From Hypericibacter terrae (GTDB lineage Bacteria > Pseudomonadota > Alphaproteobacteria > Dongiales > Dongiaceae), in the NCBI RefSeq assembly GCF_008728855.1, contig NZ_CP042906.1, positions 5,051,001 through 5,115,000 of the forward strand: a stretch of 64,000 nt of DNA, given 5' to 3'. The notes beneath the pieces were generated by a model that had not been told where the DNA came from, did no database searches, and worked only from the letters and a program-made list of their open reading frames with translations. The stretch's first letter is position 1. Every line of letters begins with the position of its first letter. Below are positions 9,768 through 40,843 of the stretch, in pieces. Position numbers and translations under genes: made by a program.

Positions 9768-9839
9768 GCAACCGCGCCGGCGGCGCGGCCCGTCCGGGGC
9801 CGCCCAGGATGCCGGCGCCGGATGAAGGATGACTCAACG

Positions 9840-10724
9840 ATGATTCAGAAGATCGGCGTGATCGGCGCCGGGCAGATGGGCAATGGCATCGCCCATGTCT
9901 GCGCGCTCAACCGCTTCGAGGTCGTGCTGTCCGACATCGATCCGGTACAGCTCGAGAAGGCCATGAAGTCGATCGACAAGAATCTCGATCGCCAGGTCCA
10001 CTCGAAGCGCGAGGATATCCGGATCAGCGAGGCCGACAAGAAGGCGGCGCTGGCGCGGATCCATCCTTTCATCGGGATGGATCATTTCGGCGACTGCGAT
10101 CTGGTGATCGAGGCCGCAACCGAGAAGGAAGAGGTCAAGGTCCAGATTCTCAAGGCGCTCTGCCCGGTTCTCAAGGCCGACGCGATCATCGCCAGCAACA
10201 CCTCCTCGATCTCGATTACGCGGCTCGCCGCGGTGACCGACCGGCCGGCCAAGTTCATGGGCATGCATTTCATGAACCCGGTGCCGCTGATGCAGCTGGT
10301 CGAGCTGATCCGCGGGCTCGCCACCGACGAGGACACCTATCGTTCGATCAAGGAACTGACCGAGAAGCTCCACAAGACCGCGGCGCCGGCCGAGGACTTT
10401 CCCGCCTTCATCGTCAACCGCATCCTGCTGCCGATGATCAACGAGGCGGTCTATACGCTCTATGAGGGTGTCGGCACCGTCGAGGCGATCGACACCGCCA
10501 TGAAGCTCGGCGCCAACCATCCCATGGGCCCGCTCGAGCTCGCCGACTTCATCGGCCTCGACACCTGCCTCGCGGTCATGCAGGTGCTCTATGACGGCCT
10601 CGCCGACAGCAAATACCGCCCCTGCCCGCTGCTGGTGAAATATGTCGAAGCCGGCTGGATCGGCAAGAAGGCCGGCCGCGGCTTCTACGACTATAGCGGC
10701 GAGAAGCCGATCCCGACGCGGTGA
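9840..10724 (+). CDS. hbd: 3-hydroxybutyryl-CoA dehydrogenase
   Basis: 294 residues: an N-terminal Rossmann domain with GVIGAGQMGNGIAHVCA binding NAD(P), and a C-terminal helical dimerisation domain with GVFG-type ends (KAGRGFYDYSG). It interconverts (S)-3-hydroxybutyryl-CoA and acetoacetyl-CoA. The ATG at 9840 has AAGGAT 9 bases upstream. Position after etfBA is a common arrangement in alphaproteobacteria and links beta-oxidation-type C4 reactions to the ethylmalonyl-CoA genes. The stereochemistry differs from PhaB in the PHB cluster at 47 kb, which makes the (R) form. Confidence 0.92.
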   Translation: MIQKIGVIGAGQMGNGIAHVCALNRFEVVLSDIDPVQLEKAMKSIDKNLDRQVHSKREDIRISEADKKAALARIHPFIGMDHFGDCDLVIEAATEKEEVKVQILKALCPVLKADAIIASNTSSISITRLAAVTDRPAKFMGMHFMNPVPLMQLVELIRGLATDEDTYRSIKELTEKLHKTAAPAEDFPAFIVNRILLPMINEAVYTLYEGVGTVEAIDTAMKLGANHPMGPLELADFIGLDTCLAVMQVLYDGLADSKYRPCPLLVKYVEAGWIGKKAGRGFYDYSGEKPIPTR

Positions 10725-10758
10725 GCGGCCACCACTCGTCACCTCATTCCTTTCTTAG

Positions 10759-10794
10759 CCCCTCCCCCCTTGAGGGGGAGGTCAGGGTGGGGGG
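10759..10794. repeat. Left 36-bp inverted repeat arm flanking DUF559 gene (type B family)
   Basis: The 36-base arm is the reverse complement of bases 11147-11182 with a single mismatch. It comprises a hairpin (CCCCTCCCCCCTTGAGGGGG) followed by an AGGGTGGGGGG tail pointing inward. The stop codon and last few codons of the DUF559 gene lie inside it. Confidence 0.9.
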
Positions 10795-11123
10795 TGATCG
10801 TGAAGCGCGGTGAGAATCGTCCGGACGACCCCCTCCAGATTGGCCAACACGTCGTTGTTCCAGAATCGAATGACACGATAGCCGCGCGAGTTGAGCCAAG
10901 CCGTCCGCGCCGCGTCTTTCTCCCGCTCCGCGTCATGCTGCCCGCCATCGACCTCGACGATCAGCCGCGCCGACAGGCAGGCGAAGTCGGCGATAAAGTC
11001 ACCGATGGGAACTTGCCGGCGAAATTTGAAGCCATCGAGCTGCTGGCCGCTCAGCGCTGACCAGAGCTTCCGCTCGGCATCGGTCGCGTCTTTACGGAGG
11101 CGTCGGGCGTCTTTCACGGACAT
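10782..11123 (-). CDS. DUF559 (VSR/PD-(D/E)xK-like) endonuclease-domain protein
   Basis: A 113-residue protein of the DUF559 family, restriction-endonuclease-like fold. Visible landmarks are [19 protein letters not shown], the [16 protein letters not shown] strand with the likely catalytic Asp, then [11 protein letters not shown] giving the E-x-D/Q pair, and the conserved C-terminal [16 protein letters not shown] at 11123 begins [10 protein letters not shown]; an in-frame extension upstream would translate repeat DNA. The gene sits exactly between the arms of a 36-bp inverted repeat, and its C-terminus DHPPP plus stop are encoded by the left arm. DUF559 function is not established; a DNA nicking or cleavage role is inferred from the fold. 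Confidence 0.85.
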
Positions 11124-11146
11124 GTCGGGAGCGGCGTTTGCGGCTA

Positions 11147-11182
11147 CCCCCCACCCTAACCTCCCCCTCAAGGGGGGAGGGG
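11147..11182. repeat. Right 36-bp inverted repeat arm flanking DUF559 gene
   Basis: Reverse complement of 10759-10794 with one substitution. Hairpin outermost, tail inward, the same orientation as the arms of the gene-free type B pairs elsewhere in the window. It lies 24 bases upstream of the DUF559 start codon. Confidence 0.9.
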
Positions 11183-11218
11183 TTTAGGCGGTATGCGCGT
11201 CGTCGCCTTTCGCGGCCC

Positions 11219-11848
11219 TCACGTCGCGCTGGTGGTCGAGCCCGCCGGCTGCCCCGCGGGGGCGTCCTTTTCCAGGAAATAGTGCATCAGCGCCAGCGAC
11301 TCCGGACTGTCCCAGACGGCGGGGCCGACCATCGTTCCCACGATCTGTCCGGCGCGGTCGATGACGAGCGTCGTCGGCAGGGCCGGCACCTTAAGCGCCA
11401 TGGGCAGGGCGTTGGGCTGATCCAGATAGATGTCGAGATGCTGGATGCCGAGCTGCTGGTAGAAGTGACGCACCGGCGTGATCCCGCCCTCGTCGAGCGA
11501 GAGTGCCAGCACGGTGAAGTCGGCGCCGCCGAGCTGGGCCTGAAGCCGGTCGATCGACGGCATCTCCTCGCGGCAGGGGCCGCACCAGGTGGCCCAGAAA
11601 TTGAGCAGCACCACGCGGCCCTTGAACTGCTCCATCGTCACCGGCTGCTGGTTGGCGTCGAGGAAGCTCGCCTGCGGCACTGGCCGGGGCGGATCGATCA
11701 GGGTAAAGTCCGAAAGCGAACCGCCGAGCGGCGGGCCCGCATTCCCGCCCGCGGCGGCGCCCGGCAGCCCGAGCGCGGTCCCCAGCAGGATGAGGCCGCC
11801 CGCCGTTCCGGTCAGCAGCCGGCGCCGCTCTCGATCGATCATCTCCAC
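11219..11848 (-). CDS. tlpA: TlpA-like periplasmic thiol:disulfide oxidoreductase
   Basis: 209 residues. The N-terminus [14 protein letters not shown] followed by a hydrophobic stretch suggests a membrane anchor or Tat-like signal. The thioredoxin domain carries the active site [14 protein letters not shown] and the cis-Pro loop ALPTTLVID. TlpA proteins act in the periplasm as reductants, for example in cytochrome oxidase copper-site assembly. GTG at 11848 is chosen because GGAG lies 7 bases upstream; the ATG at 11842 has no usable spacing. Divergent from argH, the arrangement described for Bradyrhizobium tlpA, which supports orthology. Confidence 0.9.
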
Positions 11849-29313: not shown

Positions 29314-29406
29314 CCCCTCCCCCTTCAAGGGGGAGGGTTAGGGAGGGGGCCAACTCGGTGATCGAGACATCCCACTCCCTGACCCTCCCCCGCAAGCGGG
29401 AGAGGG
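29314..29406. repeat. Type B REP pair
   Basis: Left arm CCCCTCCCCCTTCAAGGGGG with inward GTTAGGGAGGGGG tail, spacer of about 24 bases, then the inverted right arm ending in GCAAGCGGGAGAGGG. It lies between the convergent protease and homospermidine synthase genes. This is the gene-free form of the structure that brackets the DUF559 gene. Confidence 0.85.
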
Positions 29407-36958: not shown

Positions 36959-37372
36959 GTCACCCCCGCGAAAGCGGGGGCCCGTGCCGATCCAGCGGTG
37001 TCCGTCGAAAGTTGGGTCCCCGCTTTCGCGGGGATGACCATGGGAGCAAGTTGCGCAAGATCGCGCGGCCGCAGGGCTGCCGACACCTTGCCGCATTTGT
37101 GGGGATCATCGCACCCGCCTCTACCGTCACCCCCGCGAAAGCGGGGGCTCATGCCGATCCAGCGGTGTCCGTCGAAAGTTGGGTCCCCGCTTTCGCGGGG
37201 ATGACCATGGGAGCAAGTTGCGCAAGATCGCGCGGCCGCAGGGCTACCGACACCTTGCCGCATTTGTGGGGATCATCGCACCCGCCTCTACCGTCACCCC
37301 CGCGAAAGCGGGGGCTCATGCCGATCCAGCGGTGTCGGTAAAAAGTTGGGTCCCCGCTTTCGCGGAGATGAC
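36959..37372. repeat. 167-bp tandem array of type A REPINs
   Basis: Three 80-base REPINs begin at 36959, 37126 and 37293, exactly 167 bases apart. The intervening 87 bases (starting CATGGGAGCAAGTTGCGC and containing CCGCATTTGTGGGGATCATC) are also repeated almost unchanged between copies one and two and two and three. The third copy has diverged (GGTAAAAAG and GCGGAGATG changes). The unit shows no unique spacers and is not a CRISPR. The array ends 34 bases before the GIY-YIG gene. Together these fill the 531-base gap 36875-37405. Confidence 0.92.
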
Positions 37373-37405
37373 TATGAGGGCGGAATGACGCAGGCAACGC
37401 CGTTA

Positions 37406-37693
37406 CTACGCGACCAGTCCCGGCGCGAGATCATGCCAATCGGGGTTGTGCTTCTCGATCAGCTCGATCTTCCAGCGGCGATACCAGTTCTTGATGTGCT
37501 TCTCGCGCAGGATCGCGCCTTCGGGATTGTCGCAGGTTTCGAAGTAAACGAGCCGGTTCACGCCATAGCGCTTCGTGAACCCGGGAACCTTGGCGCCCTT
37601 ATGCTCTGCGACACGGCGAATGAGATTGTTGGTGACGCCCACATAAAGCGTTCCATTTCGATCCGAAGCGAGGATGTAAACGTAGAAGGACAT
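37406..37693 (-). CDS. GIY-YIG family nuclease (UPF0213/URI-like)
   Basis: 95 residues. The variant GIY-YIG motif reads YVYILAS ... TLYVGVTNN, followed by the catalytic Arg in LIRRVAEHK, then RLVYFETCDNPEGAILREK with the metal-binding Glu, and the KNWYRRWKIELIEKHNPDW tail typical of small stand-alone members. A nuclease role is inferred from the fold. The ATG at 37693 is preferred; the frame extends to a GTG at 37705. The gene lies between a tandem REPIN array and a single type A half arm at 37708, mirroring the DUF559 gene inside type B arms. Confidence 0.9.
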   Translation of the reverse strand: MSFYVYILASDRNGTLYVGVTNNLIRRVAEHKGAKVPGFTKRYGVNRLVYFETCDNPEGAILREKHIKNWYRRWKIELIEKHNPDWHDLAPGLVA

Positions 37694-37707
37694 CGCTTGC
37701 GACACAC

Positions 37708-37734
37708 TTGGGTCCCCGCTTTCGCGGGGAGGAC
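37708..37734. repeat. Type A REP half arm
   Basis: TTGGGTCCCCGCTTTCGCGG followed by GGAGGAC is the right-hand arm of the type A REPIN without its inverted partner. It begins 15 bases upstream of the GIY-YIG start codon. With the array on the other side, the gene is bracketed by type A arms. Confidence 0.85.
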
Positions 37735-37742
37735 GTTTTAGT

Positions 37743-40716: not shown

Positions 40717-40843
40717 CCCCTGCCCCAACTTTTGGGGGAGGGCAGGGAGGGGGATGACTCGGTCCACGATCTCGTCGGGATTCAAAGGGGCCGATACCGA
40801 GCAGCCCCCTCCTCAACCCTCCCCCAAAAGTTGGGGCAGGGGA
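40717..40843. repeat. Type B-related REP pair (variant stem)
   Basis: Left arm CCCCTGCCCCAACTTTTGGG and right arm ending CAAAAGTTGGGGCAGGGG are inverted, about 50 bases apart. The loop AACTTTTG differs from other type B copies but the GGGAGGGGG tail is shared. It fills the middle of the 332-base gap between the divergent transporter and AraC genes; nothing else is evident there. Confidence 0.85.

What the first reader, a model, noticed from the sequence alone, without database searches (positions are those of the whole stretch)
10759..11182. DUF559 nuclease gene inside a 36-bp near-perfect inverted repeat
The DUF559 gene (10782-11123) lies between arms 10759-10794 and 11147-11182, which are reverse complements with one mismatch. 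The arms belong to the type B REP family seen gene-free elsewhere, with the same orientation as the paired arms (hairpin outermost, tail inward). The gene's last codons and stop are made of repeat DNA. This looks like a REP pair whose spacer has been replaced by a nuclease gene, a possible self-contained unit in which a non-RAYT nuclease moves or maintains the repeats. RAYT transposases are the only REP-associated enzymes I know of, so a DUF559 counterpart would be new.
Basis: partly seen in the sequence, partly recalled or inferred. Interest (0 to 1): 0.72.

Follow-up and report, generated by a model that had tools for sequence, protein, structure and literature searches.

The report
DUF559 nuclease gene inside REP-like element
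A tiny gene for a likely DNA-cutting enzyme sits between two copies of a hairpin repeat that is scattered through the genome, and the same arrangement recurs in many bacteria, which suggests that this enzyme family is the missing partner that spreads or maintains such repeats.

Summary
A DUF559 (Vsr-like) nuclease gene lies between 42-nt inverted hairpin arms. All 4 DUF559 genes of this genome are flanked so, with three arm subtypes. In 115 alphaproteobacterial genomes 45 of 58 tested DUF559 genes are flanked, against 0 of 23 true Vsr genes and 28 of 5,560 background windows. The repeats co-occur with DUF559 (28 of 30 genomes, 12 of 85 others, p=4e-15) but not with Y1/RAYT-type transposases (p=0.13); this genome has none. 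Units in unrelated flanks share homology that stops near the arm edges (4 of 13 pairs cleanly); arm and protein similarity covary. Best reading: a REPtron-like unit with a Vsr/homing-type nuclease instead of an HUH transposase. Cutting of arms and spreading are inferred. GIY-YIG genes, meant as a control, show a parallel link to CGTC-like repeats (19 of 43). No paper in the searched listings reports either link. Against: 13 of 58 genes lack a clear arm pair, subtype and gene do not always coincide, no insertion junction was resolved.

The parts
10754..10795 (+). left arm: 8-bp stem, loop CTTGA, G-rich tail facing the gene
   Evidence: IR; model R2, 48.2 bits at 10760-10795; hairpin as centroid structure; not more stable than shuffles, z -0.31
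10782..11123 (-). DUF559 (PF04480) Vsr-like nuclease gene, 113 aa; last codons and TGA stop lie in the left arm
   Evidence: E 9.3e-44; alignment; model; 3hrl, I-Bth0305I, Vsr folds
11146..11187 (-). right arm, inverted copy, tail facing the gene
   Evidence: (50.7 bits at 11146-11181)
10754..11187 (.). whole unit arm-gene-arm; homology to the paralogue L001 of the same genome covers about this stretch and stops
   Evidence: 428-430 columns, 82-83% identity, flanks without homology
9822..10724 (+). left neighbour, 3-hydroxybutyryl-CoA dehydrogenase-like gene (name recalled, from no call)
   Evidence: ORF; used for synteny
11219..11848 (-). right neighbour, TlpA/thioredoxin-like gene (name recalled, from no call)
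   Evidence: ORF
29315..29406 (.). gene-free tail-inward repeat pair of a related subtype
   Evidence: 44.8 and 33.9 bits
51969..52067 (.). gene-free tail-inward repeat pair of a related subtype
   Evidence: 31.2 and 37.3 bits
42629..42765 (.). gene-free tail-outward pair; no counterpart at the orthologous site of G014
40718..40841 (.). gene-free tail-inward pair, weak model matches
   Evidence: 20.6 and 22.7 bits

Best explanation
The stretch is a one-gene, repeat-bounded element that works like a REPtron but with a different enzyme. A small Vsr-like nuclease (DUF559) is encoded between two inverted copies of a REP-like arm (hairpin plus G-rich tail). I think the nuclease recognises its cognate arms, nicks or cuts at them, and repair or strand transfer then copies the arm-bounded segment, either the full unit or a short gene-free pair, into other intergenic places. 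So one or two gene copies per subtype would serve in trans a population of about 100 mostly gene-free repeats. Shown: the anatomy, its recurrence, the statistical link to DUF559 and not to Y1 transposases, unit ends at or near the arms in several pairs, arm/protein covariation, purifying selection. Inferred: binding and cutting of arms, the copying step, service in trans.
For: All 4 DUF559 genes of the genome flanked, three arm subtypes. Class survey 45 of 58 against 0 of 23 Vsr genes and 28 of 5,560 windows; G028 has 8 strong DUF559 matches and all 8 are flanked. Repeat model R2 found in 28 of 30 DUF559 genomes and 12 of 85 others, p 4e-15; genomes of 2.5 Mb or more 23 of 24 against 8 of 32, p 6e-8; Y1_Tnp p 0.13. 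Homology L001/L003 ends at or near the outer arm edges; likewise L042/L134 (one genome; their arms score 28, below my threshold), L303/L324 and L324/L342 (Nitrospinota): 4 of 13 pairs examined. Mantel: 0 of 2,000 permutations reach the observed value. Among 21 tail-inward type B neighbour pairs within 1.5 kb in G000 three are wider than 200 bp: 2 DUF559 units and one gene-free pair split by an IS-like gene. In 400 kb each of two genomes, 17 close tail-inward pairs were found by my pattern, 16 with spacers of 17-134 bp and one wider, holding DUF559. 12 of 14 parsed gene-free pairs have an end resembling a unit end (shuffle p<0.04, not corrected for two ends). dN/dS 0.07-0.17 in 9 of 9 pairs. 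Fold nearest to NGO0050, then homing endonuclease I-Bth0305I.
Against: 13 of 58 class genes lack a clear pair of arms, though several have one repeat beside them. In 9 of 13 unit pairs the homology does not end cleanly at both arms. G057 has 43 repeat matches and no DUF559, and exact subtype E hairpins number 18 in G004, where none of the 3 DUF559 genes has such arms. Many Sphingomonadales copies stay at one syntenic site, so movement is rare there. No target duplication or exact insertion junction could be read. The DUF559 protein VsrA of Caulobacter is linked to mismatch repair (PMC12907096, passages).
Confidence: 0.6

Rival explanations
1. Maintenance rather than movement: DUF559 is a domesticated nuclease that cuts hairpins or cruciforms formed by its arms during replication, or drives gene conversion that keeps the arms alike; the repeats spread by other means.
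For: L001 and L003 share an arm core that reads identical over at least 35 bases (by eye) while their genes differ at 46% of synonymous sites; purifying selection; stable syntenic inheritance in Sphingomonadales.
Against: Units of one genome sit in unrelated flanks with homology ending at or near the arms, so the units themselves have moved or been copied; sites differ between two species of the genus.
Confidence: 0.2
2. Homing: DUF559 is a free-standing homing endonuclease whose target is the gene-free repeat pair; cutting a gene-free pair and repairing it from a gene-bearing copy inserts the gene between existing arms.
For: Second fold match is the homing endonuclease I-Bth0305I; GIY-YIG, also a homing family (PMC6083498 abstract), shows the same habit with other repeats.
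Against: Only 1-2 genes per subtype against about 98 type B repeats in G000, where homing would be expected to convert many; relatives have an empty site or another subtype at this place, not a gene-free type B pair.
Confidence: 0.12
3. Hitch-hiking: DUF559 is a Vsr-like mismatch-repair or other nuclease that merely landed between repeats in gene-poor intergenic places.
For: Caulobacter DUF559 protein VsrA is tied genetically to a cytosine methyltransferase (PMC12907096, passages); 13 of 58 class loci lack a clear pair.
Against: Double dissociation: 42 of 45 flanked DUF559 loci have C/G-stem arms; 0 of 19 flanked GIY-YIG loci do and 17 of 19 match a GTCA/TCATCC pattern (this loose pattern also matches 7 of the 45 DUF559 loci); 0 of 23 Vsr genes are flanked. 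Arms covary with protein; the same pattern in records labelled as distant phyla (metagenome bins, so labels may err).
Confidence: 0.06
4. The arms are bidirectional transcription terminators around a small gene.
For: Hairpins on both sides of a short gene.
Against: No T-run after the stem (by eye); the same sequence is dispersed in about 98 copies and bounds homologous units in unrelated flanks; the lone arm hairpin is no more stable than shuffles.
Confidence: 0.02

Closest known systems
REPtron / RAYT (TnpA-REP) with GTAG REPs and REPINs
   Same: Single small gene between inverted hairpin repeats; many gene-free inverted pairs; few genes per repeat subtype; tendency to cognate pairing
   Different: Enzyme is a Vsr-like nuclease, not a Y1 HUH transposase; no Y1_Tnp match in this genome; the window's arms have no GTAG tag (by eye some other subtypes, L002 and L004, contain the letters GTAG where stem meets tail)
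CGTC-tagged REPs (Di Nocera 2013, PMC3733652; passages and the second part of the Discussion seen)
   Same: Short palindromes, often in dimers, mainly alphaproteobacteria, reported to lack a dedicated transposase
   Different: DUF559 arms are C/G stems with a G-rich tail, no CGTC tag at the window's arms; CGTC-like arms flank GIY-YIG genes instead
Vsr, and DUF559 protein VsrA of Caulobacter (PMC12907096, passages seen)
   Same: Domain and fold family
   Different: That work proposes very-short-patch repair; in its main text 'inverted repeat' and 'palindrom' occur 0 times
Homing endonuclease I-Bth0305I (3r3p)
   Same: Fold (TMq 0.67); enzyme of a mobile gene
   Different: Named a mobile intron protein; no inverted-repeat ends or gene-free derivatives known to me (recalled)
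3hrl, NGO0050 of Neisseria gonorrhoeae
   Same: Nearest solved relative, E 1.7e-36
   Different: Titled only 'putative endonuclease-like protein'

Membership tests
REPtron (RAYT element) | Y1/HUH tyrosine transposase gene between REPs | tested here: not met
   Gene is PF04480; no PF01797 match in the genome
REPtron (RAYT element) | GTAG tag at one end of the hairpin | tested here: not met
   Window arms run GGAGG-TTAGGG / GGAGG-TCAGGG. By eye, L002 and L004 arms contain GTAG where stem meets tail, most others do not
REPtron (RAYT element) | Inverted REPs flank the gene, and gene-free copies are dispersed | tested here: met
CGTC REP | CGTC tag and CCA tail | tested here: not met
   Window arms read; pattern classes
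Vsr mismatch-repair endonuclease | Vsr-like fold with acidic residues and His | tested here: met
   Foldseek 1cw0 and 1vsr E 0.05 (weak), 3hrl E 4e-8; E17, D46, E57, D59, H63 invariant in 39 sequences
Vsr mismatch-repair endonuclease | Vsr family by sequence (PF03852) | tested here: not met
   Pfam hits at E<=0.001 are DUF559 and MTES_1575 only
Vsr mismatch-repair endonuclease | T:G mismatch nicking at a methylated motif | not testable with these tools
   Needs biochemistry
Free-standing homing endonuclease | Homing-type nuclease domain | tested here: met
   I-Bth0305I fold match
Free-standing homing endonuclease | Allelic empty target converted by the gene-bearing allele | tested here: inconclusive
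   Empty or differently occupied sites seen, no junction resolved
Insertion sequence / MITE | Terminal inverted repeats and short non-autonomous derivatives | tested here: met
   (descent of gene-free pairs from the unit is suggested, not proved)
Insertion sequence / MITE | Known transposase (DDE, HUH, serine or tyrosine recombinase) | tested here: not met
   Between the arms the only Pfam-tested ORF is DUF559
Insertion sequence / MITE | Target-site duplication | tested here: inconclusive
   Relative only about 85% identical; junctions unreadable

The most novel reading that the evidence does not exclude
Bacterial REP-type repeats are served by at least two enzyme systems besides RAYTs: DUF559 (Vsr-like) nucleases drive the C/G-stem repeats of Proteobacteria and some other phyla, and GIY-YIG nucleases drive the CGTC-like repeats that were thought to lack an enzyme. 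Homing-endonuclease folds would thus have been taken into repeat-bounded, one-gene mobile elements with gene-free derivatives served in trans.
Probability: 0.5. Interest if true: 0.92.

Novelty: new variant of a known kind. Interest (0 to 1): 0.82.

Why it matters
REP and REPIN repeats are among the commonest dispersed DNA in bacteria, yet RAYT transposases are the enzymes tied to them in the papers seen here, and the CGTC repeats, mostly of alphaproteobacteria, were said to have none (PMC3733652). A widespread nuclease family of unknown function gets a testable role and a named substrate, the repeats get a candidate enzyme, and the GIY-YIG parallel makes the idea general. If cutting is shown, it would be a small, one-protein, sequence-paired DNA-mobility or gene-conversion system. 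It also bears on the proposal that DUF559 proteins are mismatch-repair enzymes (PMC12907096).

Tried and rejected
GIY-YIG as neutral control: failed as a control because it proved to have its own repeat arms (13 of 23; 19 of 43 after more loci); against those 13 of 23 the DUF559 rate is not significantly higher (p 0.099). Replaced by Vsr.

First covariance model R1 got a wrong structure from RNAalifold and was not used. R2 was built with the stem given by hand. Nine of R2's 12 arms come from the class loci tested, and eight class genomes gave model arms; without those eight the co-occurrence gives p 1.6e-11 and, for ten or more matches, 8.7e-8.

Strict one-to-one between gene and repeat subtype: tested for subtype E hairpins and not met. 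Subtype counts in 400 kb of G000 and G014 were too small to tell. One search was flawed (masked N counted as matches) and repeated. One search timed out and printed nothing. In one search the row for L016 was placed at wrong coordinates; it was set right.

Insertion junctions and target duplications: sought by comparing 400 kb of G000 with G014; about 85% identity was too low. Plasmid search for polymorphic sites: the 4 of 8 Azospirillum records looked at have no arms and share one site.

Of the 80 named loci, 55 are flanked, but many are one syntenic Sphingomonadales site; I do not count them as independent. Rfam: no match. PADLOC: only two weak partial hits to long models. NCBIfam: one hit below its cut-off.

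Rows dropped: of 61 class matches with E up to 1.5e-25, 58 were tested; three were left out (contig end, in-frame stop, partial); weaker matches, mostly partial, were not tested. Loci too short were skipped: 7 of 30 GIY-YIG, 6 of 29 Vsr. L329 was not counted as flanked (run of N). In one search one of 15 gene-free pairs did not parse; five other fetched repeat stretches were not put in.

Hit tables, genome sizes and copy positions used were typed in.

Full report
WHAT IS THERE. The window holds a 42-nt inverted repeat, 10754-10795 and 11146-11187, 93% complementary. Between the arms, on the minus strand, is a 113-residue DUF559 gene, 10782-11123 (PF04480, E 9.3e-44). Each arm is a hairpin (CCTCCCCC-CTTGA-GGGGGAGG) on the outside and a G-rich tail (TTAGGGTGGGGGG or TCAGGGTGGGGGG) on the inside. 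The stop codon and the last codons lie in the left tail. The arm core occurs 98 times with up to 3 mismatches in this 5.89-Mb chromosome; the reversed control pattern gives 0.

PAIRS IN THE GENOME. Of neighbouring type B copies within 1.5 kb, 21 pairs face tail-inward and 3 tail-outward (distances are core start to core start). Eighteen inward pairs lie 77-162 bp apart, half of them 115-117. The pairs 400 and 406 bp apart are two of the genome's four DUF559 genes. One pair 1,364 bp apart is a gene-free pair into which an IS-like gene has gone (the IS type is recalled). Eleven gene-free pairs aligned show conserved inner ends. In 12 of 14 parsed gene-free pairs at least one end resembles an end of the gene units (shuffle p<0.04, not corrected for two ends; three of the 14 belong to one longer repeat). 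They may be short derivatives of the unit, as REPINs or MITEs are.

ALL FOUR GENES. The other three DUF559 genes of the genome are flanked too: one by the same subtype, one by CCCTCCCCCAACTTTTGGGGGAGGG-type arms (87% complementary over 45 nt), one by CCCCCTCCCCTTGCGGGAGGGGG-type arms (41 nt, 100%). In the family (17 genomes) 13 of 26 distinct genes correctly placed score 36 or more; both halves of one broken gene in G014 also lie between arms.

SURVEY AND CONTROLS. The test: best local alignment between 300 bp upstream and the reverse complement of 300 bp downstream; positive at score 36 or more with arms within 200 bp. Class sample (115 genomes): 45 of 58 near-full DUF559 genes positive (loci). 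All 120 loci in hand then, other classes and picked multi-copy genomes included: 77. First phylum batch: 12 of 25 at score 36 or more, no distance limit. Background windows in the 120 loci: 28 of 5,560. True Vsr genes, same fold family, in the same 115 genomes: 0 of 23, with a wider range of 500 bp. G028 has 8 strong DUF559 matches, all 8 flanked. Model R2 matches at least once in 47 of 58 DUF559 loci (counted by me from the listing) and in 3 of 59 GIY-YIG and Vsr loci; nine of its 12 training arms come from those 58 loci. Where my parser resolved the tail, it faced the gene in 54 arms and away in 3; 33 of 90 were unresolved.

CO-OCCURRENCE. R2 over the same 115 genomes (at most 60 candidates scored per genome): repeats in 28 of 30 genomes with a strong DUF559 match (E at or below 1e-20) and 12 of 85 others (p 4e-15). 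Ten or more matches: 20 of 30 against 3 of 85 (p 3e-12). Without the eight genomes that gave model arms: p 1.6e-11 and 8.7e-8. Genomes of 2.5 Mb or more only: 23 of 24 against 8 of 32 (p 6e-8). Some R2 matches are the DUF559 arms themselves, so genomes with few matches say little. Y1_Tnp shows no clear link (11 of 22 against 29 of 93, p 0.13; ten or more matches p 1.0), and 22 of the 28 genomes with both DUF559 and repeats have no Y1_Tnp match. Exceptions without DUF559: G057 (43 matches), G019 (17), G032 (16).

THE UNIT AS THE THING THAT MOVES. L001 and L003, two genes of this genome with 86% protein identity, share 428-430 columns from arm to arm; the flanks show no homology. I looked at 13 pairs of similar genes: clean ends on both sides in 4 (L001/L003; L042/L134 in one genome, whose arms score only 28; L303/L324 and L324/L342 of Nitrospinota), ends within about 40 bp of the arms in L049/L133 and L274/L314, the other 7 not clean on both sides or with homologous flanks. 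L024 in G014 has only a truncated left arm. At the window's site the same-genus genome G014 has a different unit: other arms, protein 52% identical, while the neighbours are 91-92% identical. In G001 and G016 the aligned parts of the two neighbour genes lie 58 and 46 bp apart, with no DUF559 and no arms between. Other sites in 400 kb are empty in G014, or hold another subtype, or hold CGTC-like repeats (read by eye). In contrast, many Sphingomonadales copies share one syntenic site.

PAIRING AND SELECTION. Arm similarity follows protein identity: rho 0.31 between genomes, 0.56 within genomes, 0 of 2,000 permutations as high in either case. This is moderate and does not remove shared ancestry. 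Subtype E shows that pairing is not strict: 4 exact hairpins in G014 and 3 in G001, which have such a gene, but 18 in G004 and 7 in G006, where no gene with such arms was seen. dN/dS in nine pairs is 0.07-0.17. E17, D46, E57, D59 and H63 are invariant in 39 sequences; the loci were fetched with peptide seeds, so some invariance (YRVIRFWN) is by selection.

STRUCTURE. AlphaFold2 model, mean pLDDT 83.9. Foldseek: 3hrl (E 4e-8), homing endonuclease I-Bth0305I (E 1e-4), Vsr (E 0.05). Profile search agrees: 3hrl 1.7e-36, 3r3p 8e-4.

A PARALLEL. GIY-YIG genes of the same genomes are flanked in 19 of 43 loci tested; 17 of the 19 match a GTCA/TCATCC pattern and none the DUF559 stem pattern; background 4 of 1,008. 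The loose GTCA/TCATCC pattern also matches 7 of 45 DUF559 loci, of which 6 match the DUF559 stem too. The GIY-YIG arms look like the CGTC REPs, of which Di Nocera et al. 2013 wrote that they 'apparently lack a dedicated transposase' (PMC3733652; passages, second part of the Discussion).

PRINT. Searches of the held library (PMC, open licences only): DUF559+palindromic, DUF559+REP, REP/RAYT/Sphingomonas/endonuclease, REPIN/nuclease/palindromic/Alphaproteobacteria/RAYT, GIY-YIG+repetitive extragenic palindromic (0 papers), DUF559+inverted repeat (0 papers), GIY-YIG/REPIN/palindromic repeat/extragenic palindrom (20 of 125 listed). From the listings, from passages of PMC12907096, PMC3733652 and PMC8266576, and from term counts of 0 for DUF559 and GIY-YIG in PMC12306157 and PMC6006769, I saw no report of either link. 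Subscription papers and preprints are not covered.

MECHANISM. Shown: anatomy, recurrence, association, unit ends at or near the arms in several pairs, selection. Inferred: the nuclease recognises cognate arms, cuts, and repair copies the unit or its gene-free form. I put 0.6 on this, 0.2 on arm maintenance without movement, 0.12 on homing into gene-free pairs.

ORGANISM. Unnamed.

Noticed in passing
window 37292-37735 (gene match 37466-37687, minus strand): A GIY-YIG nuclease gene lies between CGTC-type hairpin repeats (CGTCACCCCCGCGAAAGCGGGG, with an inverted partner downstream). In this locus (L185) the arm score is 34, just below the threshold; over 43 GIY-YIG loci of the class sample 19 are flanked, 17 with GTCA/TCATCC-type arms.
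   Followed up: partly
L352 (G000 chromosome 1873250-1874900): A gene-free type B pair is split by an inserted IS-like transposase gene (named by eye).
   Followed up: yes
L033/L034 (G014): A broken DUF559 gene still sits between arms of the L004 subtype, so units can decay in place.
   Followed up: no
G057: 43 repeat-model matches and no DUF559 match in a genome rated 100% complete; it has a Vsr gene.
   Followed up: no
L347-L350 (Azospirillum large plasmids): DUF559 genes at one syntenic site without arms: possibly a domesticated, repeat-free branch.
   Followed up: partly
G000/G014 orthologous sites near G000 4970310 and 5152369: The same intergenic site holds a DUF559-type repeat pair in one species and a CGTC-like pair in the other (by eye).
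   Followed up: partly
L063, L064, L068: These gene-free type B pairs share sequence well beyond the arms, so they belong to a longer repeated segment (by eye).
   Followed up: no
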